A DNA stretch of 64,000 nucleotides from Batrachochytrium dendrobatidis JAM81 (taxonomy: Eukaryota > Chytridiomycota > Chytridiomycetes > Rhizophydiales): assembly GCF_000203795.2 (NCBI RefSeq), contig NW_006281107.1:196965-260964 (forward strand). The letters are read 5' to 3'. Below, in pieces: positions 3,936 through 64,000 of this stretch. The position numbers and the translations under genes were made by a program. Every line of letters begins with the position of its first letter. The stretch's first letter is position 1. The notes beneath the pieces are model-generated. The model was given only the letters and a program-made list of their open reading frames with translations. It did not search any database and was not told where the DNA came from.

Positions 3936-4330
3936 ACATGACCAATTGAACAATCAGTCAAATATTTGGTATACAGTAACAGCATATTCTGTAGTAATGG
4001 ATTGTAGATGTGATGACAACTATCCATAATCAGGGTGACAATTTGAAACTACCTGGTTACTGAATACATGACCGCAATTGAGAATATCAATGCAATATAC
4101 TACTGAAATTGATTTTCCATTAACAGCGATGCTTGTATATTAATCCACCCTACAGGGTGTTTCCAGCTTTGTCCACCCTATATGGTGTTTTTTAAATATA
4201 CATTTGAAAAGTGTTGATTGTCACCCTTGAAGCTGCCGTCATTATAAAATGGCAGCCATCTACCAAGTTCAAAACACCTTCAAAACACTTTCATCACACT
4301 CATCACACTTTTATCAAACTACTCGATACA
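3936..4330 (+). promoter_or_regulatory. Duplicated upstream flank and promoter of aspartyl-protease-like copy 1
   Basis: The segment matches the inverted upstream flank of the second copy (36,585-36,960). Shared parts are the ATTTGGTATACAGT word near 3963, a block with two CACCCTA-(C/T)A-GGGTG-type repeats near 4146-4185, and a CATTATAAAA-type box at 4239-4247, about 90 bp before the ATG. Conservation of this non-coding block suggests a shared promoter. Confidence 0.6.
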
Positions 4331-5979
4331 ATGCTGATTACTCTAGAATGCGTTCTACTTGCGTTACAAGCGGTTGCTGCAGTTCGAATTCCATTAGATT
4401 CGTCAACTGGAATTGCCGGCCAATCAAGCAATAGGCTATCGAAACGATCACCCGTTGAATTGGGTCTTGGTGCTAGCCGATGTTTCGCGATAAAATCCAA
4501 TGTTTATGGAGTTGATGTACGTATCATGTCATGCATTGTAATTCGATATCAATTTGCACCACGTTGAATCAATCTCACACTTGTTTAAAATAGTTGAATT
4601 TACTAGTCGATTCATCAGTTTCCGATATAGTCGTACCACTTCCTAGTTCAAGCAACGATGTAGGTTTGGCTATACAAAGTATTCCAGGTGGACAACCCGT
4701 TACTATAAATTACAAAGGCGATGAGTATAATGGAATTAGTTCCACAACCGCTGTGACGATTCCGGGTACTAGGATAACTGGAATTGATTTACCAGTATTG
4801 GCAGTTCAAAAAAAGTCGGCAAGTCTAATTGGTATCAATCCAAAGTTTGATGGAGTATTTGGATTTGGTCACCCATCGTTGTCAAAGCATCATTCACCAA
4901 TCACTGCGATAAATGTTTTGTATAATGATGGTGTCATTTCTAAAAACGAGGTTGGTCTTCAACTATGTCCGTATGAAATGCTTTCAGATAGCTTCATCAA
5001 TATAGGAAACACGGATATAACTGAAAAATGCGGAACGAATGGAAAAAGTATTGCGTGGGTACAATCGCCACCAAACAGTTACTCTACTGTCAACATCAAG
5101 AGTATACTAGTTAATGGCGAAAAAGTGGATCTGCCTGCTGGATTCCAAAAAAAAGTGGAACATGGACGTACTTTGTACTCGAGTTTGGAAACATGTTCTA
5201 CATATATGCATTTCCCTGAAACAGTCGTGGCAGCGTTGATTAGTGCTATTCTTGATAATGGTGCAATCACTGTCAAAAGTAATCTGTTTGATGACCAGCT
5301 CAGTAAAGAAGAAATTGAAAAAATATTTTTAAAACACTATCTAATGCCCACATCCAACTACAATATCAAGTGGGACAGGATGCCAACGCTTTCAATTACA
5401 ATGCATGCTGAAACTCCCGTAACTGTTGAAAATCGCAATTCCGTTGTAACAATCAAATTGGGTCCTAGAAGCTATATGCAGAGATATGATTCTAAAAGAT
5501 GTAAATAGTTGACAATTGTATGCAGTATGTGTTGTTTGATTAACCTGACTAATATACATGTTGAATTATAGTTGAATTTGCTATAGAAGTTGGTTCAGAT
5601 TATTATGCAGCTCTTGGTATTCCATTTATGAACCAACTTGGATTGACATTTGATCGAAGACATGCACGCATTGGGTTTGGTCCTGGATGTGGATGCGAAG
5701 CCGCGACTGATGGATATCCCAGTATTTCGACCGGTTATCGAGTGCTCTGGCCATTAACACAGTAAGTTGTTTGATATTGATGTGTGGATGTGTGAATTGA
5801 TATTGATCATGAATTTGATGTATACTGTTAGATTGTCTGAACAACCAAGTACTTCAGGCTCAGGTGGTGCATCTACTCGCAGGAGGAAACCAACAACTGC
5901 AGCTGATCAAGCAGTCGTGTCTGAAGACACTCACGACACTGCCAAGAGTCACAAACAGACTCTCAATAAACTCGACTGA
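4331..5979 (+). CDS. Secreted aspartyl-protease-like protein (A1 fold), copy 1, probable pseudo-peptidase
   Basis: Four exons: 4331-4516, 4594-5500, 5572-5761 and 5832-5979, giving 476 residues. Introns are 77, 71 and 70 bp with GTACGT, GTAAAT and GTAAGT donors. The N-terminus (MLITLECVLLALQAVAA) is a signal peptide. A1-pepsin landmarks are present: VDSSVSDIVVP near residue 67, FDGVFGFGHPSLS near 147, and the C-terminal ALGIPFMN...FDRRHARIGFG lobe. The first catalytic triad reads D68-S-S rather than D-T/S-G. By alignment with the usual DSGTT-x(3)-LP block, the second catalytic position is E261-T-C. Peptidase activity is therefore doubtful. The tail after residue 427 is Ser/Thr/Lys-rich. The copy at 34960-36584 has the same exon lengths except the last. 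Confidence 0.85.
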
Positions 5980-34959: not shown

Positions 34960-36584
34960 TCAAGCTTTCTTGTGAGTGGCCTTTGAATGCTTACTACCAC
35001 GGAGAGTATTACCAAGTTGCGACAATGATCTCCTGAGAGTAGATGTGAGATCTGAACTTGAAGTACTTGGTTGTTCAGGCAATCTAACAGTATTCATCAA
35101 ATTCATGATCAATATCAATCGATACACCCACACATCAATATCAAGCAACTTACTGTGATGGTGACCAGAGCACTTCATGACCGTTTGAAATAATAGGATA
35201 ACCATCAGCCATGACTTCACATCCACATCCAGGACCAAATCCAATGCGTGCATTTTGTAAATCAAATGTGACTATAAGTCGGTTCATAAATGGTATACCA
35301 AGAATTGCATTGTCACTTGGACCAACTTCTACAGAAAACAGGTCTATAATCCAACATGTATATTAGTCAGGTTAATCAAACAACACATATTGCATACAAT
35401 TGTCAAATATTTACAATTTTTAGAATCAATTCTCTTTAGATAGTCTTTGGGACCCAATTTGATTGCTACAACAGAGTTGCGATTGTCATCAGTTACGGGA
35501 GTTTCAGAATACATTACGATTGTGAGTGACGGCAGCTTGTTCCATTCGATATTAAAACTGGATTTGGGCATTGGATAGTGTTTCCAAAATATGTTATCAA
35601 TATCTTCCGGGCTGAGCTTGCGCTTAAGCATACTATTCTTGGCAGTGATCGCACCACTATCAAGAATAGCGTCAACCAATGCTGTCACGACTACTTCAGG
35701 AAAACGCATATATACAAAGCATGTATGTATATATGAATACAAAGTACGTCCGTTTTCCACAACTTGCTGAAATCTCTCGGGCAGTTCCACTTGTTCGTCA
35801 TCGACTAGTATAATTCTGATGTTGACAGTATGGCGATCGGTTGTTGGTGAGTTTACCCATGCAACACTTGTTCCATCTGTTCCGCATTTTGCAGTTACGT
35901 CCGTGTTTCCTATATTGATGAAGCTATTTGAAGTCATGCCATACGGACATAGTTGAATTCCAATCTCGTTATTGGGAATGGTACCACCATTGTACAAACT
36001 ATCCAACACAGTGATTTGTGGACGACGCTTTGACAACGAGGGATAACCAATCCCAAATACTCCATCAAAATTTGGACTGATACCAACTATATCTGGCGAT
36101 TGTTTTTCAACTGCTACTACTGGTAACCCAATGCCAGTTATTTCGGTACCCGGAATCGTCACAGTGGCTGTGAAACTAATTCCTCTATACTCTTTGCCTT
36201 TGTAATCTATAGTAACGTGTCTCCCACTTATAATACTTAGTATATCCAAACCTGCATTGTTTTTTGGAGTAGGATATGGTACGATCGTATCAGAAATTGA
36301 TGAATCGACATATAAACCCAACTGTTTTAAACAAGTGTGAGATTGATTAAACGTGGTGCAAATTGATATCAAACTACAATAAATGACATGATACATACAT
36401 CGATTCCATAAATATTGAATTTCATTGTGTAACATCTGTTAGCATCACGGCTCAGTTCAACAGGTGATCGTTTTGACAGCCTATTGTTTGATGGACTGTC
36501 AATTCCAATCGGTGAATGTAATGAAACTCGAACTGCAGCAACCGCTTGTAACGCAAGTATAACGCATTCTAGAGTAATCAACAT
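34960..36584 (-). CDS. Secreted aspartyl-protease-like protein (A1 fold), copy 2, probable pseudo-peptidase
   Basis: Four exons on the minus strand: 36584-36399, 36321-35415, 35343-35154 and 35083-34960, giving 468 residues. Exons 1-3 (186, 907 and 190 bp) and all introns (77, 71 and 70 bp) have exactly the lengths of copy 1. A signal peptide (MLITLECVILALQAVAA) is present. The first active-site block reads VDSSISDTIVP (D68-S-S). The second position, D in active enzymes, is H261 followed by T-C. The fold landmarks FDGVFGIGYPSLS and LGIPFMN-type C-terminal lobe remain. So this copy too keeps the fold, secretion signal and reading frame while lacking the canonical catalytic pair. The short tail (about 41 residues) differs from copy 1. 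Confidence 0.85.
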
Positions 36585-36960
36585 TGTATAGAGTAGTGTG
36601 ATGAAAGTGTTTTGGATCTGATACATGACTGTCGTTTTATAATGACGGTAACTTCAAGGGCGGCAATCGGCACTTTTCAAACGGATATTTATAAAAAACG
36701 CCAAAGCACCATGCAGGGTCAACAAAGCCAAAAACACTCTGTAGGGTGAATCGATATACAAGCATCGCTGTTGGTGGAAAATCAACCTCGGTAGTATTCT
36801 GTGTTGATCTCTTCGATTGCGGTCATGTATCCAGTGATCGGATAGTGTCAGATCATTACCCTGATTATGGATAATTATCATCACATATACAATCCATTAC
36901 TACAACATATACTGACACTGTATACCAAATATTTGACTGATTGTTCAATTGGTCATGGTT
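36585..36960 (-). promoter_or_regulatory. Duplicated upstream flank of aspartyl-protease-like copy 2
   Basis: Inverse match to 3936-4330. It contains the CATTATAAAA-type box (36,635-36,645), the paired CACCCTA/TAGGGTG words near 36,700-36,755, and the GTATACCAAATATTTGACTG end near 36,920-36,940. Confidence 0.6.
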
Positions 36961-53006: not shown

Positions 53007-53954
53007 TCAATCCAAATCTAAATCCGACTTTTGAAATTTTAAACCATGCCTTTTCATAAACTTTTTCAATTGTTGCCTGATACTGTATACTCTTGTGCTT
53101 ACCTCTCTATACTCTTGTTTCAATCGCTTTTCAACCTTTGGATCGTACGTTGATTCAGATACATCTTTGCCCATTTCTAACGCTGACCGGTGTTCCCATC
53201 CAAGGCTTTCATAGTCATAATACTCTTTGTGTTTTTTGTCTTGTATTATTTTAGACACTACAAGTTTTTGTCTTATACGATCAAGGGTTCTCTGATATCT
53301 TTGGCGTAATACAGCTATTTGATTTGTAACAGTATTGGCAGACTCATCCTCGTCTATTGGCTGTTGCTGGTTTTGACTGGAAGTGTTCGGACTGGGTTGA
53401 TCAGTTGGTTGTTGCTGGTCTTGGTTATCAATATTTGAATTGACCTCATCAATCAACTCTCGCCAGTCTTCCGGAATGCCTGGATCGGGTTTATCGATTA
53501 CATTTTTCCAAACTTGTTTGGAAGTGCTTGGACCCAGTTCATCAATTGGTCGTTTTCGACCTCGTCTGGAAGTGCTTGGATCAACTACATCAATTGATTG
53601 TTGCTGGTCTTGGTTGGGGTTTTTTGAATGAATCATATCCATTATTTCTTGCCAGTCATCTTCGGGAATTTGTGGAATAGGCTCATTGGTTGAACCAGAC
53701 ACTTGACTGAAAATGTTTGGATCAACTACATCAATTGGTTGTTGTTGGTCTTGATTGGGGTTTTTTGAATGAATCATATCCATTATTTCTTGCCAGTCAT
53801 CGTCGGGAATTTGTGGAATAGGCTCATTTGTTGGACCAGACACTTGACTGAAAGTGCCTGATGCTTGGAGTGAACCATCGTTACCAGTCGGTATCAATAT
53901 TGCATTAGTGGTTGCTGCCGCGCTCAGTACGAATAAAATATCAACCAATTTCAT
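53007..53954 (-). CDS. Secreted low-complexity protein, family B copy 4
   Basis: Single exon, 315 residues from ATG 53954, which begins the family signal peptide (MKLVDILFVLSAAATTNA). Residues of about 32-125 are a direct repeat of about 45 residues present twice (SQVSG-TNEPIPQIP..DDWQEIMDMIHSKNPNQDQQQ). Then come a basic SRRGRKRPIDE unit, Ser/Pro/Gln units and a charged helical C-terminal 110 residues ending KSDLDLD. The C-terminal half is most like copy 3. The repeat is also visible at DNA level (about 53,590-53,680 against 53,720-53,830), so it arose recently. Confidence 0.85.
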   Translation of the reverse strand: MKLVDILFVLSAAATTNAILIPTGNDGSLQASGTFSQVSGPTNEPIPQIPDDDWQEIMDMIHSKNPNQDQQQPIDVVDPNIFSQVSGSTNEPIPQIPEDDWQEIMDMIHSKNPNQDQQQSIDVVDPSTSRRGRKRPIDELGPSTSKQVWKNVIDKPDPGIPEDWRELIDEVNSNIDNQDQQQPTDQPSPNTSSQNQQQPIDEDESANTVTNQIAVLRQRYQRTLDRIRQKLVVSKIIQDKKHKEYYDYESLGWEHRSALEMGKDVSESTYDPKVEKRLKQEYREVSTRVYSIRQQLKKFMKRHGLKFQKSDLDLD

Positions 53955-54300
53955 TAGATTGGTCAATGAGTTTAAACGACTAGTAGAAAGTAGAGTGTTG
54001 AAACTGATATTGATTGTAAAACTGAATGTACTCGATTGTATTTATATGTTTTGTATAGCAAACCAACCCTTTTAGGTTAACCAATATACAGGGTTACTTG
54101 ATTGTTTGTAGTGGGTTACTATCAAACTAGACAGTATGCTGCTCCCTATCCACAATATCATATTGATGTTCATGTCAATTGAACTATGCTTTTACGACCC
54201 TTTTATCAAATTTCTTGGAAATCACCCTTCAAGGGTGTTATGGCCACAGACACTTTGTTTTACAACCGTATTCATGTCAAATGGATTCCTTCGGTATTCA
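53955..54300 (-). promoter_or_regulatory. Promoter of family B copy 4
   Basis: Inverse family B block with CCCTTTTAGGTTAACCAA at 54,067-54,084, CAGGGTTACTTGATTG, the TAGTGGGTTACTATCAAAC word, GCTGCTCCCTATCCACAATA and the short dispersed motif at 54,261-54,290. Confidence 0.6.
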
Positions 54301-56117
54301 TTGTGCAATGACTGTATTCTGTGTTGCAACATACAATAGTTACACATTCAGTTGACTGGTATTACACATTGACTGCATTACGTGTTCAATATACAACGAC
54401 CATAATATGACACGCAATCAGACTATAATGTTGAATCTACACTTTGTGCACTCTTAGTAATCATACATTGTACGATCACCAAGTTTGAACCCACATTCAT
54501 GTATTGTGTTTGACTGTCAATGTTGTCAATACAACTCTGTACACACATTTGTTGATGATATTCATGACCAAACTGTAACAATGTGTATTTTGCATTGGAT
54601 TTGAACTGCAATCTGCGACTTGTACGCATTATGATGCATTGTTTCAATAGCCATGTTGCATTCATCAACATCAACGTGCAGTGTCGATCTGATGTTTGGT
54701 GTTGATGTTGTGTTGATATTCCAACAACACTGAATATCGCAAATCAAGTCAGCATTGACTCGTGTGATAATAATCCACAGACAGTCGGTCTTATCAAACT
54801 GTTGTACAAACATATTGACATTCGATCGATCGGAACGACAATCAATCACTCCAATGTGTTGCTGGATATACAAACTATAACACACATGGTGACTGTTTAT
54901 GTAACACATGTCGTAACACAACATTGAATCAATCAAACTGCAATTACACACTCCATCATATGTCGCATGTGTTGGCATGTCAAGTGTGGTGATATCAGGT
55001 CAAAACAGTTGATTGGCATAATAATCCATCAACATTCGAGTCGTTTGGTCAGCCAAACAGTTGTATCATGCGGTAATATCAATATACTGTGATTGTAGCA
55101 TGTCATTCATCAGACATTGTTGAAACCATTACAAAACCTGTTTGGACCAAATCAAACTGTGACGAATACCGCATACTCGGATCATCATCAACTAAACCAG
55201 GAATACACACTTTTCCAATATTTGCGATTGATGATTGAACCTGATTCATGGCTAATTCGTCGAGTGTTTGCAATGTGTTAATACAACCAGTCATATATCA
55301 TTTGGTGTTGTTAACTTGTGGTTTGGTGATGGTTTGATTGCAAGTGATTCCTGGACACAACACATTGCAAACCAAGCAACTTGACTACTTGAACGACTCA
55401 AATGACTCGATACTAACCGGAATTCAATACAATTGTTGAATAGCCCGTGTAATATCAGATCTAGTCAAGCCAACAGACAAGCCAACAAACACGACAGCCG
55501 ATACAACTATATACAGCAAAAATGCGTTGGATTCATTTGTGATTGTATACTCATCAATCTTGAATGACAGTGTTTGTGCAGTTTTGGATATAGGTTGTAT
55601 GAATATTGCAACAAACATGTAGTATTATAGTATGACTGACATATACTACTATTGGATCAAACAACATAACAGTCCGATATAATGTCAAATATATATGTGC
55701 ATAGAATGGTCACCAAACCTGATCGGTTGTGTATCAATCATAAACAACTACCAATTAGCAACAAGTGACATTCGTATACATTGACAGAATTACTACAGAC
55801 AACACCAACAATTACAAGATTACGTGCAATATATCAAGAATTGTGACATGGTTTCAATAAACCAACAACAACTGAACAAATGGCATTGCAATGATTATTC
55901 ATAGAACAAGGCAATCAAACGACAACGACAGTGTTAGTGACGATTATATTGGACAATATTCATGATTCAAATATTGACAGTCAAACATTGGTTAACCAAC
56001 AGTTGTACGATTATACAACTGACCCGTGTATTGACAAGTGATCAACCTCGATCCGGTCATAGTTGAAACGGTATATCACAGGACTCGAAAGTTGTCAGTA
56101 TTGTTGTGGTGTAATAT
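54301..56117. other. Spacer with coding relic copy
   Basis: About 54,426-54,553 is the third copy of the minus-strand relic (SCIDNIDSQTQYMNVGSN), here open for about 80 residues. The remainder shows Asn/Ile/Val-rich scraps on the minus strand but no supported gene. Confidence 0.4.
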
Positions 56118-56330
56118 TAGCAACTACACACAACTTGACATGAATGACAATGTTGATATCGAGACTGTCAATGTATTACAGTGTATTGGTCAACAGTGAC
56201 TGAGATCAATGACAATATTGCAGTCAATTCAATCCAATTGTTGATTGGAACAATCATTATCCACTTGTCAGATTCAGCATATAAATGAATGTTTTGTAAC
56301 ATATTTACTAATCCAACAATTGACTGATTT
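56118..56330 (+). repeat. Dispersed repeat of about 200 bp, copy 2
   Basis: Nearly identical to 3290-3485, same orientation. It lies some 270 bp before the decayed Crinkler gene. Confidence 0.7.
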
Positions 56331-56602
56331 AAACATTGAATATTAAAATGTTGAATAAAAGACTCGAGTCATTATATGAATGACGTAATCAATTGAGTTG
56401 AATTGACACTCGATTGAACAATACAAATAAACACATGACAAATGTTTAATTTGATTGTAATTTCACACAAAATTGCTTAATTCAAAGTGTGAATTTGTCT
56501 CATTCTTCACACGCCATTAAATTTTGGATTTAAAGTCCAATTTTGTCTCTTTTACAAACTAAATGGAAAACACTTTACATTCAATACCTCAACAACCAAC
56601 CA

Positions 56603-59420
56603 ATGGAAATAGAAACTCACTTTGATGGAGAATTGGATAGCAAAAGACCACTTGACGATGTTTCAACACTAATTGCAGCCTTTCAAGCAAGACCAGGGTC
56701 GCTTCTCGGTAACACTGACTCGGAACTCATCACTCCACTATGTGATGGATGGGGTGGAGACCAACTACAACGCATGGGACTCGCTTGCTGCACTTGAAAC
56801 AAATGGGACTGTTGGATCCAGTCCACTCATAATCAAATCACACAGTGGTACTGGACAAGGCGTCGCTAGTTCAGTGTCAGGAGCGTCAGTGGGTGTGAAT
56901 ATCAGACTGGTTTCGGGGGAACTTGAAGAAACTACAAATCCATCACTTTCAAATTATTGCCACATTGCCGATTCTTTAAAAAACGACAACTGTGTCGTGC
57001 AAATCGTAAATACTCTCCTTTCAGTCACAGCTGGAGAACTTTCCGAGTCGAACTTCACAAACTTACCGTTCACGTTTCCCGAGGGCTCGTCTGGCTCAGG
57101 AAAGAGTCAGATGGGCTTTAATATCAAAGCCAATATCGGTAATGAGAGGAGAGTGCACTACTTCCTGTTTGATCCTCCTAGCTCAACATCACAGGATATT
57201 TACCGCAATTTCCAAAACACTTCAAAGTTGTTCAGCAAGTGTTATGTGGCGGATGAGCACATGTATAGCTCTGAAGCTTCGTCTCCAAGCTGTGGCTCGT
57301 TGTTCAAAGAAAGTCTATATATTTATGGATTTATTTTTGAACTGCTATCTGATAAAACTCAGTCATCCAGAATAAACACTGATCTAAGTCAATGGATTTC
57401 TTGGAAAGTCATCAGTTTTCAAACATCTTTGTCAGTCTTTGAATCAATACTGATCGTGGATGATTGAGTTTCGTCGGATAGCAATTTAAAAATAAATTCA
57501 TAAATTCATAAACCTTTTTTGAATAGCAAACCACAGCTTGGAGACGAAGCTTCAGAGCTATACATGTGCTCATCCGCCGCATAACACTTGCTGAACAACT
57601 TTGAAGTGTTTTGGAAATTGCGGTAAATATCCTGTGATGTTGAGCTAGGAGGATCAAACAGGAAGTAGTGCACTCTCCTCTCATTACCGATATTGGCTTT
57701 GATGTTAAAGCCCATCTGACTCTTTCCTGAGCCAGACGAGCCTTTGAGAAACGTGAACGGTAAGTTTGTGAAGTTCGACTCGGAAAGTTCTCCAGCTGTG
57801 ACTGAAAGGAGAGTATTTACGATTTGCACGACACAGTTGTCGTTTTTTAAAGAATCGGCAATGTGGCAATAATTTGAAAGTGATGGATTTGTAGTTTCTT
57901 CAAGTTCCCCCGAAACCAGTCTGATATTCACACCCACTGACGCTCCTGACACTGAACTAGCGACGCCTTGTCCAGTACCACTGTGTGATTTGATTATGAG
58001 TGAATGGTCCAATCATTGCTGTGAATGCGATTTCAGTTTCAATTCAATATCCAGTTGGTTGTTACAATCATTCACTCATCATCAAATCCAAGAATGATGT
58101 TGGCTCAAACCCAACAATCACTGGTTCATACAATTATTTCAAGAAAACTATCCAGATCAATGGTATCAATGTTTCTACAAATCATCTCAAAAGACCTGAT
58201 CAACTTGACAAACTCACATACTTGGTTTGAGTATCGGTTTGTCATATTGACTTGTTCATCTGATTCTGCAAAACCTATATTCATTAATATGTATCAACAT
58301 AGTCTCAAACAAATGTCATTTGGATTTGTTTCTTGGACAAGATTGCACGACACTTTTGTTGGAAATGCATTGATTGTTCCAAACAACAACGGATAGAATT
58401 GGAAAAAGTAAAACTGTTGTTTCTTGATGATGCTCAACAGTAATTACAAGACACAAGTTTATGGAGACTTTTAATCAAAGCATCGCTGAGTTGGTTGTCA
58501 TTAAGCATGCGATTTATCATTGCATCAAACCATATTTTTGTTGGAGGAATTTCAAGTCCTGTTGAACTCGGTAGTCTTTCAGGTCTTGAAAAGTGACTTT
58601 CTACTTATTCCAGCCAAACTCTGTGAATTCCATGAATTCCATGAATTTCTGGATTTACTCGTTATTGGGCTGCCAAATAACATGAACAATGAGACCTTGA
58701 AACATGTTCTTGTAACGGAATGTGATGGTCTTGTTGGTGCGCTGTGTGTGTCGATTGATGATCTAAAAACACAATGTCTAAACAACATTGAACCCACTCG
58801 AGCAGATCTACTACAATACTGTCTATCAAACAATTCCATGTTGGGTATGACTCGTTGTTTTGGAAGCGACCATTCAGATCTGATTAGAATGGTTTTAAAC
58901 TGCTACTCAAGAAATGTCTGACAAAAATCATCGATTGGGCAACTTGGAAACCCAGCAAAATATGGAATCTTATTCATCACTCAAAAGGCTGGAATATTGA
59001 TGGAGTCGTTTGACCTTGAACTTGCTTTTACTTTGCTGTTGGTCAAAAAATACTATTCAAATGGACATTCACAAACTGCTTTCCATCACAGCATTTGTCT
59101 CTTCAAAAACTCATACGCAATGTTGTCTCATCAATATCGACCAATGTATTGGAATCTGTTTCGTCATGCGGTTTTCCAAATGAAACAACTTTACAACACA
59201 TGTTTATGGAGATATTGGTTTACTTGACTAAACCAGACTGTTCAATCTAACCAAAACTATCAAAAGTATTTCCCAACAACTCGAATGTGACGGACACTAT
59301 TGATGGTGGAATTGATTATTATTTGGTCAATGGACTAGCAATCAATCAACACATTGACAGATTTACCATCCCAAATGGAAACAACGACAATCCAGTTGTA
59401 ATCCATATTGAGCCTTGAAT
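56603..59420 (+). pseudogene. Decayed Crinkler-type P-loop gene interrupted by a palindromic duplication
   Basis: Read on the plus strand, Crinkler landmarks appear in order but in several frames. An acidic header starts at ATG 56603, and a shifted frame from 56745 leads into LPFTFPEGSSGSGKSQM (Walker A, near 57,070) and KESLYIYGFIFELLSD. An inverted copy of this block follows (to 58002). Then come KVKLLFLDDAQ (Walker B-like, near 58,420) directly before a TAA, SMRFIIASNHIF, FLDLLVIGLPNNMNNETLK, and near 59,290 a last VTDTIDGGIDYYLVNG block. Stops at about 58,439 and 58,595 and several shifts break it. This is a dead copy of a chytrid Crinkler of a subtype different from the intact gene at 40966. 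Confidence 0.65.
56824..58002. repeat. Large inverted repeat, two arms of about 560 bp
   Basis: Left arm 56824-57383 and right arm 57443-58002 are inverse copies with a loop of about 59 bp. The outer roughly 470 bp differ at only a handful of sites. The inner 80 bp are more diverged. The arms encode the same Crinkler P-loop segment on opposite strands. Confidence 0.9.
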
Positions 59421-59866
59421 TCAAACAGTCGTGAATCAAATCATTAATAAACTACAAAAACAGTCCAATATGCCAACTCGCATTTATCCACAACTCGATA
59501 CGTGATGTTCAAATGTCTAATATTCAGACTGTGCTGATTGCAATTGTGGTTGTAATTGTGGTTGTGTGTAAATATCAATCCAATACTCGATTCAATACTT
59601 GATTCAACTTGAACATGTACAGTTTTGTAGTAATCCATTTGATCACATTGACAGAATCAAGCAATGATCTGATTCAACAACACCGAATGATGCATCCATA
59701 TCACTTGTATCAATCAATTGTACACAATCAGTCAATATAATCAACAGTCACTGTCAAGATTGGCATGATTGATTCAATTCATTCAATTTATTCGATCCAT
59801 TTAATTGCATAGATCTGACTGGCATTGCAACTCATTGTTGTAAAATCACTACCTCACAATCAATTA
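59421..59866. other. Spacer, no gene seen
   Basis: AT-rich DNA after the Crinkler relic and after the end of the minus-strand ARM/DUF4246 gene. It contains a TTGTGGTTGTAATTGTGGTTG direct repeat near 59,545, and no gene. Confidence 0.45.
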
Positions 59867-62800
59867 TCAATGATCAAGATAATACACCCGCTCATATATG
59901 TATTTGTTGTATGCTCTTATGATTCGAGTTCGGTCACTTGTCAATTCATCTCGATAGTGTTTGGCTTCAGTTGGTGATTGAACACCTTGAATATACTGCG
60001 TGGCATCATTCCACAGTTCAGGCAGTATGGGTGTCTTGTCAAGACTCGAGTTGTACCATTGTGGTTGTTGTGGAGCCACATGCGCAGTCGAAACAATCCG
60101 ATAGGCTGGATTCACTACAAAAAATGTCAAAATCTTGCAGTGTCCTGGTTGAGTTGGATCTGCAAGTTCAAATGATTGTTCTTTGTGTTGGTATCGATTG
60201 GGATAAACTGCACATCGACCACTTGGTAACTCAAGCGATCCTAGATACTGACTATGCGGTGATTCTAGATCAATTCCATACACATCTTTCCAATACATAT
60301 TAGATGCTCTTTCATCAAACCGATCAACAGCCTCGCGGAAATCGAGTTTGGGTGTGGTGATATTTTCCACGTCGTAGTAATACAGTCCAGTTGCAACAAT
60401 CGATTCGTTAATTGGACCTTCATTGTGCCAGTTTCCCTCGTCGTATTTAGGTTTGGATGGTGTCAGTTGAATGTTGGTGAGTTTGACAATGACTTGTAGA
60501 TTACGACCACGCAGTGATACTGGTTTTGCTGATTCATAACTGGGTTCAAAATGTTCCGGAAGTGTTGGTACATACACGGGACGAATGACTTTAGTGTCTG
60601 ATTCCATACCACCACGATCTGACTGGCTTGGTGGTTCATATCCATCTGTGCCATTGCGAATATCAATATACTTGAACACTGGATCCATCGTTCTGAACAG
60701 ACTTTCAAACATTGGGACAAAACATTTGAATATTTTGGCAATGCATTTGTACATGTCTCGATGCCATATCGGATTCAGATTGTTGATGTATGAGTTGATG
60801 GTCACACTGCCATCCTGTTCGACACGGAATTCACTCGGAAGACATTGGAACTTGCGTGATATAAACTTGGGATTGCCTTCAATGATGGGCGTATCTGAAA
60901 CAAGTCGAGTCGATAACAATATATCGCATGGTACCATTGTGATGTATTTGAGTCGTATACTCAGTGGTGCAATCATCGTTTGTCCATATACAACACTGTA
61001 CATTGATGCATCAATCAGATTGTGCACCATTTGACCAGTGTTGTGATTTGATCCATGTTCAATATCCGATACATTTGTCATCAATCGCGTGTATATATTG
61101 TCAGGTATGCCATTGTCCAGTATATACGTCAGTTCAACAGGTCCTGGTACAATTGTGCCCAATCCATCACTGCCATTACAAACAAGCTGCTCGACAAAAA
61201 CCCCGAGTTGTTCCAACGCAAGATTAAATGTTGATGGTGATATATTCCGATCGAGTGAGTCAGCCCTCCATTGTTCCACAATATGCTGGTTTGTGATATC
61301 GATCCACCACATGGGTTTGCAAAGTATACATTGCAGATACTGGATATACCGCATTTCGACAAGTGTGCGTACCTCTCCATGTTTATATCCGGCAATTCCA
61401 GATTTCATATCAATTTTGGCATTGTCGTCATATGGCTGAATACTTGAACTAGCAACATGAACCCGATGCTGAAAACACGTTTTAATGATCTGACCAGCAG
61501 CCCTCTTGTTTATGTAGTTAGCAGTATCCGATTTTACAATAGCCGTTAGATTTTCAAACATCCCGCCTTGATCCAACTCGGTACGTATTGAACTGTCGGG
61601 ATGATTGTCGGCAAAACCAGCAAGTGTTTTGAGTAAGTTTACAGCACCAGCGTCATAACTAAAGAGGCCATAAAAAAGTATATTTCTACGTGAATAAATA
61701 GTGTCGAGTTGCTTTACAATTCCATATTCTCGAAACACCTTGATCATCTCGGCCTTGTTTGTAGATGTCTGAATCATGTTGCTGACATTATTAAACAGAC
61801 GCAAAGAGTCATACATATCAACATCATACATCGATATCGTCAATTGCTCAAAACCAACGACCGTGCAAGTGATACAGGAAAGTCGCGCATATTGGATGCA
61901 ACTGATCCAGCTACTTCGATTATGCGTGTTTTTAGTTCAGAGTTGTTGCTGTATTTGATACACAAGTCGTTCAGTATTTGAATTAAACCCGACCTTATAA
62001 ACTCGGCTGAAATCACTTCACAATCTGCACGTTTGCAAAAGTTCTCAATAGTATAAATACTTTGATCAATCACTTCTTGATCGACACTCCTGTATTCATG
62101 TCATGTCAATCCAACCATGTCAAATTTACCAATTGTGATGACTGGACACATTCATGCATAACATCACATACCTGAGCGTATTGACCAGTGCTGGAATGAT
62201 GCCACATTCCGCTGCTTTTACTGGGTTATGACAATAAATATTCCGATACATGGTTTGAAGATTTCTGATGAAACCAACAGCAACTGAACCATTGGATGAT
62301 TCCAGTCGTGAAATAAGTCTTGATACCACGATGCCAAACTAATGATATTGTTCAATGTCAAGTATACAATCAACATGACATGACAAGACACTGTCCAAAC
62401 TGATCCAATATTGTATCATTGTAAACATACATTTTCATCGTCAATATTATGGTAAACTTTCAAAAACAGGCCAATTACCAATTCGAGCATTTCTTGATCC
62501 GACTCGTGAACAATAATATCAACCATAGGCTTGATGTCAAATTTACACTCCTCACTCCAGCATCCATAACCGAACAACTCTATGCATGTTTTTATCGCCT
62601 ATATGCATATTGACACTGGGTGAGTTGGATTTCAATCATTTGATCAATATCAATCATGACTTGCCATCAATTTGACTTGACGGTTTGGTGATTGCATGAG
62701 TTGTACAAGTTGATTGTTTAGTTGATGTGATACTTTTAACCGACCATCATAGTGTACAATACTCAAAAATACTGTAGTAAACTTCATTACTTTGACCTAC

Positions 62801-63208
62801 ACAACACATGATTAGTTTAGTCATGAACAATTCATTATTGTTGCAATATATGAATACCTGTAAACTGGGTCGATTATACTCCAAATACTTGGCTGCAATA
62901 TCTTCCAATCCAATACTCTGTAAACGATGCATCACATATGTATATCATGCTATTTCAAACCAACACAAAGTCAGCAATGGTTTGAACTCATCAATAATAC
63001 AATGACTATTAAACTTACTGCAGTTATGTTGTTTCAACTCCAGTAGCAATTCAAGTAATCTGTCCCATATTTCATCAGCCTTGTATACTTGAGCATCCGT
63101 TGTTAACAGTTTCAGATCTTCCAGGTGTTTGATCAACTCTTTCATGATATCAACACAATCCATGTTTGATAAAATTAGTAAAGTTGAATTTTGATTTGAC
63201 AATTTCAT
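59867..63208 (-). CDS. ARM-repeat protein with C-terminal DUF4246 domain
   Basis: Proposed minus-strand exons: 63208-63019, 62917-62858, 62598-62479, 62338-62172, 62089-61915 and 61846-59867. Exons 1-5 encode armadillo-like helices (DLKLLTTDAQVYKADEIWDR; ELFGYGCWSEECKFDIKP; AAECGIIPALVNTL). The last exon (659 residues) holds DUF4246 landmarks: RGRNLQVIVKLTNIQLTP, GNWHNEGPINESIVATGLYY, YDVENITTPKLDFR and LPSGRCAVYPNRYQH, with His/Glu residues that suggest metal binding. Two joins are uneasy. Exons 1 and 2 do not agree in phase, and exons 5 and 6 need a 68-bp intron (GTAGCT...GAG) whose DNA itself reads like ARM coding. Either the exon model is wrong there or the N-terminal part is damaged. The DUF4246 part is fully open. 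Biochemical role unknown. Confidence 0.65.
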
Positions 63209-64000
63209 TCATGCGAATGTCCAACAATTGCCAAGAATTGTTCATGTTTGGATTGTTGTAAAACACACAAACGAGTTGTTCCATTTTAGTATTGTTTTGA
63301 TCAGTTTTTTGTAACAAAATTGGATTGTTATCAAACATGCATTTAGAAATACTGTAAATTAATATTCTGAATGTGATCGTTGTAGATTTGGTTTAATAAA
63401 CAAGTTAGTTTACTACAACACATGGTAATGGATTACTAAACATCATCATAAATCAGATGGACTGGACTGGAATGGAATGAGATGAAATCAATGACAATCG
63501 CATTACAAACAGTGTGTTGTGATTAAATCATCGAGTATTTCCAAATACAAACTTGAATGAAATGCTTTGCCACAAGACTGATCAACTGTATTACTGTTTA
63601 TACTGTGGTATTATTGATGTATTGTAATATTTGGTGTTCAGATACACAATGATAATGGTAGTACAACTCATGTCAGTTGTACAAACCAAACGTGATTAAA
63701 GCCAATAATAATGTCAGACAAGATTGGATAATGAATTAGCGTGTAAATCATCAATATTGACCAAGATTGATTGAAATGGTGAGATTGAATTGGATGGTGA
63801 TGAACACAATAAATGTGTGTACAGAGTTGTATTGACAACATTGACAGTCAAACACAATACATGAATGTGGGTTCAAACTTGGTGATCGTGCAATGTATGA
63901 TTACTAAAAGTGCACAAAATGTAGATTCAACATTATAGTCTGATTGTGTGTCATATGATGGTTGTTGTATACCAAACACGCAATGCAGTCAATGTGTAGT
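63209..64000. other. Right window edge with coding relic
   Basis: About 63,818-63,950 is the fourth relic copy, here in plus orientation (SCIDNIDSQTQYMNVGSN up to a TAG). A minus-strand frame from ATG 63338 overlaps the start of the ARM gene but has no support of its own. Confidence 0.4.

What the first reader, a model, noticed from the sequence alone, without database searches (positions are those of the whole stretch)
56824..58002. Near-perfect 560-bp palindrome made from a Crinkler P-loop segment
A fragment of a Crinkler gene is present twice head-to-head with only a 59-bp loop. If transcribed it would fold into a long double-stranded RNA matching Crinkler mRNAs, a natural hairpin that could feed RNA silencing of related genes. 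It could equally be a recent inverted duplication from template switching, still young because palindromes are usually lost fast.
Basis: partly seen in the sequence, partly recalled or inferred. Interest (0 to 1): 0.8.

Follow-up and report, generated by a model that had tools for sequence, protein, structure and literature searches.

The report
Folded-back Crinkler gene fragment, present twice
In the frog-killing chytrid fungus a piece of a broken Crinkler gene lies next to its own mirror image at two places on one scaffold; it is best read as a scar of DNA copying that jumped strands, and whether its RNA silences related genes is untested but easy to test.

Summary
The palindrome is real. 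Its homologous arms are 56824-57369 and 57457-58002 (546 bp, 21 differences) around an 87-bp loop. The two fragments are convergent, not head-to-head. A second palindrome lies about 102 kb away in an inverted duplicate of at least 6.5 kb, so an artefact is unlikely. The insert sits at the N/C hinge of another Crinkler type; empty sites exist. The inner junction fits a template switch at a short inverted repeat about 87 bp apart. The palindromes then recombined: the window copy has 255 identical bp of arm; the other copy has its core reversed relative to its flanks and arms 60 bp longer. It is older than the duplication. Two Argonaute-like and three Dicer-like loci exist; no RdRP was found. A Crinkler upstream block is kept, and every arm shares 21-mers with all 12 single-copy relatives, so a silencing hairpin RNA is possible. 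But mismatches show no lean to G-U pairs and expression is unknown. Best reading: a recombining pseudogene scar; silencing about 1 in 6.

The parts
53514..60009 (.). Block present a second time, inverted, at C33:149500-155969 (92.5% over 6546 aligned columns); the copy's edge is an assembly gap, and similarity resumes beyond it (window 61674-63806 against C33:145704-147838)
56000..56566 (+). Upstream block shared by Crinkler loci; at least 40 places genome-wide, this one and copy A included; presumed promoter region (inferred)
56567..56823 (+). Crinkler N-terminal header of the C2 type, read in more than one frame
56824..56839 (+). Hinge sequence, left copy (16 bp; left edge of the insert)
56824..57369 (+). 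Left arm, P-loop Crinkler segment in sense
57360..57369 (.). Fold-back junction: matches relatives both as end of the sense copy and as end of the antisense copy
57370..57456 (-). Loop, 87 bp; continuation of the antisense (right-hand) copy
57457..58002 (-). Right arm, P-loop Crinkler segment in antisense
58003..58072 (+). Piece Y: resembles the tail of a divergent Crinkler header (70-82% to several); lies on both sides of the palindrome in copy A
58073..59324 (+). Hinge (58073-58088) and C2-type Crinkler C-terminal part; directly follows the header at the empty sites

Best explanation
A fold-back rearrangement scar in a Crinkler locus that has stayed a recombination substrate. (1) A P-loop Crinkler C-terminal segment came to lie at the N/C hinge of a C2-type Crinkler locus (shown by empty sites). 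(2) It became an inverted pair when DNA synthesis switched strands at a short inverted repeat about 87 bp apart (inferred from the junction). (3) The locus was copied as an inverted block about 102 kb away (shown). (4) The arms of the window copy were partly homogenised; in the other copy the core is reversed relative to its flanks and the arms grew outward by 60 bp (pattern shown, mechanism inferred). (5) The full reading frame of the relatives is lost; a transcript from the kept upstream block, if any, would be a long hairpin (inferred). No function is needed to explain it.
For: Empty sites L044 and L045 share a 16-bp overlap exactly at the insert edges. Left homology ends at 57369 in 11 of 12 relatives and right homology at 57360 in 12 of 12. 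Second palindrome with the same loop, flanks inverted but core direct. Six sites L=L and R=R across copies, none flank-linked; three sites changed in both arms of one copy; a 255-bp mismatch-free stretch in the window copy that random placement reached in 3 of 100,000 trials. Copy A complementary for 60 of 60 further bp. Relatives have 764-770 codons in 10 of 12 loci; the window has at most 264. Yeast fork-switch junctions use inverted repeats of 2-14 bp with halves within about 100 bp (PMC10766183, passages).
Against: No un-inverted donor closer than about 88% was found in this assembly, so the precursor is not seen. The arms differ with a lean to synonymous changes (P 0.016, 0.36, 0.13, 0.025 after allowing for transitions), not quite what an inert scar should show; the arms may come from two close paralogs or exchange with coding genes. 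Copy A shows no mismatch-free stretch beyond chance (121 bp, reached in 15,331 of 100,000). Expression is unknown.
Confidence: 0.68

Rival explanations
1. A hairpin-RNA silencing locus: transcribed from the Crinkler upstream block, the RNA folds, Dicer cuts it, and Argonaute-bound small RNAs lower P-loop Crinkler mRNAs. It would supply dsRNA in a fungus without RdRP.
For: Hairpin of -1025.8 kcal/mol; upstream block kept; two Piwi-domain loci and three loci with two RNase III domains and a Dicer dimerisation domain; 155, 133, 167 and 148 of 526 21-mers of the four arms are perfect in at least one relative and every arm hits 12 of 12; 21-nt small RNAs are abundant at Crinkler genes in Phytophthora, and hairpin origin was considered there (PMC3804510, PMC3522703, passages); two copies kept.
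Against: No RNA data. Mismatches are not biased to G-U (12 against 12 in the window copy, 10:12 and 12:10 in copy A). Arm similarity is explained by conversion. Paralogs of 82-87% identity share 21-mers anyway. The Phytophthora authors favoured an RdRP route for Crinkler small RNAs.
Confidence: 0.17
2. A short protein gene: the left arm is read as a truncated P-loop Crinkler protein of 240 residues that ends in the loop and the start of the right arm.
For: Open frame 56673-57467 with first ATG at 56745; the same 240-residue protein is in the protein database as P0070; B_L against A_L differences lean synonymous (9 of 14, expected 4.65, P 0.016).
Against: It starts inside the header and lacks about two thirds of the relatives' length; in copy A the corresponding arm is not the one linked to the header.
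Confidence: 0.08
3. Assembly artefact from mis-joined reads.
For: Copy A lies about 2 kb from an assembly gap (N at L017 854-2500).
Against: No N in the window; arms differ at 21 and 19 of 546 sites, partly different sites; the artefact would have to arise at two loci whose flanks differ by 2.5%.
Confidence: 0.03

Closest known systems
Inverted junctions by replication-fork template switching (ODIRA and related models; PMC10766183, passages read; PMC4689423 search listing only)
   Same: Inverted copy begins at a short inverted repeat whose halves lie about 87 bp apart
   Different: Only an inverted pair at each place, no triplication; origin of replication not testable; 87 bp is above the preferred 40-80 bp
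Hinge recombination of Crinkler genes in Phytophthora (PMC3726527, passages read)
   Same: Breakpoints at the junction of N-terminal header and C-terminal part
   Different: Here the incoming segment is an inverted pair placed ahead of the resident C-terminal part
Crinkler-derived 21-nt small RNAs of Phytophthora (PMC3804510, PMC3522703, passages read)
   Same: Crinkler genes as possible source and target of small RNAs
   Different: Oomycete, with RdRP suggested there; here a fungus with no RdRP found, and no small-RNA data
Hairpin-RNA loci of Drosophila simulans (PMC10317233, PMC10292708; start of abstract in search listing only)
   Same: Hairpin loci whose endo-siRNAs suppress genes; that such loci are made from pieces of their targets is recalled, not from these listings
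   Different: Expression and small RNAs are shown there, unknown here

Membership tests
Crinkler (CRN) gene fragment | Conserved N-terminal header joined at a hinge to variable C-terminal parts | tested here: met
   One header type joined to the C2 part, another to the P-loop part, with the border at the hinge. Database proteins named Crinkler match the relative L024 at 68% over 12% of its length (P0053, P0054). PF20147 does not detect Bd Crinklers (PMC12204190, passage).
Crinkler (CRN) gene fragment | Intact reading frame from header through C-terminal part | tested here: not met
   264 codons stop to stop at most near the palindrome, against 764-770 in 10 of 12 relatives; it is a fragment
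Fork template-switch inversion (ODIRA-like) | Junction at a pre-existing short inverted repeat with halves within about 100 bp | tested here: met
   Overlap at 57360-57369, TCCA by eye, about 87 bp apart
Fork template-switch inversion (ODIRA-like) | Interstitial inverted triplication containing a replication origin | tested here: not met
   Only two inverted copies at each place; the origin cannot be tested. So it works like a fork switch but is not filed as ODIRA.
Hairpin-RNA (endo-siRNA) locus | Long inverted repeat able to fold into dsRNA | tested here: met
Hairpin-RNA (endo-siRNA) locus | Dicer and Argonaute in the same genome | tested here: met
Hairpin-RNA (endo-siRNA) locus | Near-perfect match to target genes | tested here: met
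   Shared 21-mers with 12 of 12 relatives, though overall identity is only 81-89%
Hairpin-RNA (endo-siRNA) locus | Transcription and small RNAs from the arms | not testable with these tools
   No RNA data held

The most novel reading that the evidence does not exclude
In a fungus that has Dicer and Argonaute but apparently no RdRP, effector-gene shuffling itself makes hairpin genes: a fold-back at the Crinkler hinge, kept under the Crinkler upstream block and present twice, makes dsRNA that restrains the P-loop Crinkler family in time with the family's own promoter.
Probability: 0.15. Interest if true: 0.82.

Novelty: new member of a known kind. Interest (0 to 1): 0.48.

Why it matters
If it makes small RNAs, it would be a natural, RdRP-independent source of RNA silencing aimed at putative effectors of an amphibian pathogen, and would show one way such a fungus can use RNAi without RdRP. 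If not, it is still a clear record of how a fold-back arises at a Crinkler hinge and then evolves (arm conversion, core reversal, outward growth) in two copies that can be compared base by base.

Tried and rejected
Head-to-head arrangement: rejected, the sense strands of both arms point to the loop. Target-site duplication of a mobile element: the 16-bp direct repeat at the insert edges is the hinge sequence that other Crinklers carry, so it is not read as such. Several palindromic loci: of 16 genome matches to the arm, 4 belong to the two palindromes and 12 are single (counts there are lower bounds). Another inverted pair at C33:140020-140744 is a dispersed repeat. Pfam gave no name for three open frames of the C2 part.

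Mistakes of mine, corrected: searches did not turn four of 12 relatives (L008, L009, L011, L015) to the right strand; their 21-mer counts and polarised tallies are replaced. One search had the same fault for two relatives (L008, L011), replaced. The binomial P values ignore transition bias; one search replaces them. One search used 560-bp arms (27 and 25 differences), one search uses 546 bp (21 and 19). In one search the frame taken from L039 was a neighbouring gene (MIP family), so it is no test of that Dicer; searches are.

Full report
WHERE. The window is C33:196965-260964 of a 23.49-Mb assembly in 33 contigs. Contigs C21 (1,600,105 bases) and C33 (1,082,576) have exactly the lengths given for contigs that hold Batrachochytrium dendrobatidis JAM81 proteins (P0001, P0062), so I take the organism to be that strain. 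Bd has an expanded Crinkler-like family: 162 genes in PMC5364385 and 27 to 108 copies per strain in PMC12204190 (passages read).

OBSERVATION. The inverted repeat is there as described. Comparison with 12 single-copy relatives in the same genome (81.6-86.6% identical to the left arm by blastn) shows where homology ends: the left copy stops at 57369 in 11 of 12 (57349 in L027), and the right copy, on the - strand, runs through the loop to 57360 in 12 of 12. So the arms are 546 bp with 21 differences and the loop is 87 bp. The predicted fold is one long hairpin.

THE HOST LOCUS. In L044 (C27) and L045 (C15), window 55945-56839 and 58073 to at least 59315 lie directly next to each other, 96-98% identical, sharing 16 bp (56824-56839 = 58073-58088). 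These are empty sites. The insert is therefore 56824-58072: palindrome plus the 70-bp piece Y. The header before it is 98-99% identical to these two C2-type loci, and 71-74% to the five P-loop-type relatives that align over nearly all of it; a sixth, L029, is 85% over the last 98 bp. The insert point is the hinge between N-terminal header and C-terminal part, which in Phytophthora Crinklers is a known recombination breakpoint (PMC3726527, passages). The C2 part starts at the same point in 19 further places at 97-99%. P-loop relatives have 764-770 codons from the first ATG in 10 of 12 loci, 735 in L032, and L033 is broken. Near the palindrome the window has at most 264 codons. The C2-type loci L044 and L045 have no stop-to-stop frame above 138 codons in the stretch held, introns not considered.

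THE FOLD-BACK JUNCTION. At 57360-57369 the sequence matches the relatives both as end of the sense copy and as end of the antisense copy; by eye the switch can be placed at TCCA. The halves of this short inverted repeat lie about 87 bp apart. Yeast inverted junctions arise at inverted repeats of 2-14 bp with halves within about a hundred bp, 40-80 bp preferred (PMC10766183, passages). At the right edge the antisense copy passes into Y, which resembles the tail of a divergent header (70-82%), so a second switch or join happened there.

TWO COPIES. A second palindrome at C33:151497-152675 lies in a block of at least 6.5 kb that is inverted relative to the window's block; the block edge in that copy is an assembly gap, beyond which similarity goes on. 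The flanks match inverted, but the core with its loop matches directly. So one of the two cores is reversed relative to its flanks, as recombination between inverted arms would do. In that copy (A) complementarity goes on for 60 of 60 bp beyond the shared arm ends because Y lies on both sides, and by eye the header is cut near 56770, where it meets Y at a 5-bp match. The window copy (B) has none of this and its left edge is the regular hinge. I read B as closer to the first state and A as derived by fold-back growth.

AGE AND EXCHANGE. Over 546 bp: B_L/B_R 21, A_L/A_R 19, B_L/A_L 14, B_R/A_R 20, B_L/A_R 17, B_R/A_L 29 differences. Flanks differ at 44 of 1752 and 50 of 1910 sites. Six sites have L=L and R=R across copies and none has the flank-linked pattern, so the arms had diverged before the block was copied (unless the cores later exchanged between copies). 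Three sites changed in both arms of one copy, and all 21 differences of B lie in the inner 291 bp, leaving 255 identical bp, which random placement reached in 3 of 100,000 trials; copy A shows no such excess (121 bp, 15,331 of 100,000). I read this as arm-to-arm conversion in B. The palindrome is older than the duplication and not freshly made. I give no date.

CODING SIGNAL, AGAINST A SIMPLE SCAR. In the coding frame the differences lean to synonymous: pN/pS 0.16, 0.37, 0.26 and 0.21 for B_L/A_L, B_R/A_R, B_L/B_R and A_L/A_R, against 0.53-2.44 in the two wrong frames and 0.27-0.52 for the six pairs of the four relatives of 558 nt. Allowing for transitions the excess is modest: P 0.016, 0.36, 0.13 and 0.025, and the pairs are not independent. 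Either the arms exchange with coding paralogs, or they come from two close paralogs, or the left arm is still translated. A protein of another Bd assembly (P0071, O5D80_006347) joins a similar header to a sequence that matches the right-arm frame at 92% and ends where, by eye, the right-hand copy has a stop. It could be the precursor or a flipped palindrome; its DNA is not held.

RNA SILENCING. The genome has two Piwi-domain loci, one with PAZ, Mid and Piwi in one open frame, and three loci with paired RNase III domains that also carry a Dicer dimerisation domain. RdRP gave no match, but no control genome rang, so that search alone proves little. PMC9926174 (passages) states that Bd has Dicer and Argonaute and that no RdRP homolog is found; PMC4290597 (passages) gives what I read as 2 Argonautes and 0 RdRPs for JAM81. 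The Crinkler upstream block is kept: 40 places, this one and copy A included, of 99 candidates with 40 scored, and 94.7-95.7% identity over 55000-56449 to the block before relatives L023, L024 and L032. Each arm shares 21-mers with 12 of 12 relatives: 155, 133, 167 and 148 of 526 in at least one, for B_L, B_R, A_L and A_R. So everything needed is present except evidence of RNA. Against it, mismatches are not biased to G-U (12:12 in B, 10:12 and 12:10 in A for the two strands). By title, the library searches for Batrachochytrium dendrobatidis with inverted repeat (12 papers), crinkler with small RNA and inverted repeat (4 papers, all on Phytophthora) and Batrachochytrium with siRNA and small RNA sequencing (2 papers) showed no report of this palindrome or of Bd Crinkler small RNAs.

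VERDICT. A real, twice-present fold-back of a Crinkler segment at a Crinkler hinge, most likely a by-product of replication template switching and hinge recombination that went on recombining. Silencing is possible and can be tested cheaply with small-RNA reads.

Noticed in passing
58073-59062 and 19 further places in G000 besides copy A: The C2-type Crinkler C-terminal part is 97-99% identical in 19 further places, always starting at the hinge; the two such loci checked have no long open frame. A recently spread or homogenised, perhaps broken, Crinkler class.
   Followed up: partly
G000 C14:13396, C11:38723, C21:32602, C21:42758, C9:533355, C27:26257, C32:1249899: Seven single RNase III domains apart from the three Dicer-like loci, several near contig ends and in frames of 274-277 codons; looks like a small repeat family that carries RNase III.
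   Followed up: partly
L018 2921-3645 (C33:140020-140744): A dispersed repeat of about 255 bp stands as an inverted pair around a 219-bp piece that is itself 98-100% identical at other places; repeat-like, not Crinkler.
   Followed up: yes
4293-5885 and 35030-36622: A 1.6-kb inverted pair, 80% alike, 29 kb apart, covering an aspartyl-protease-like gene (PF00026 match in the right copy), one of several large mirrored repeats in the window.
   Followed up: no
57457-58002 (counterpart of left-arm 57296-57328): Ten of the 21 arm differences of the window copy lie within 33 bp and are special to its right arm among the four arms; part of the resulting peptide resembles P0071 of another strain, a likely conversion tract.
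   Followed up: partly
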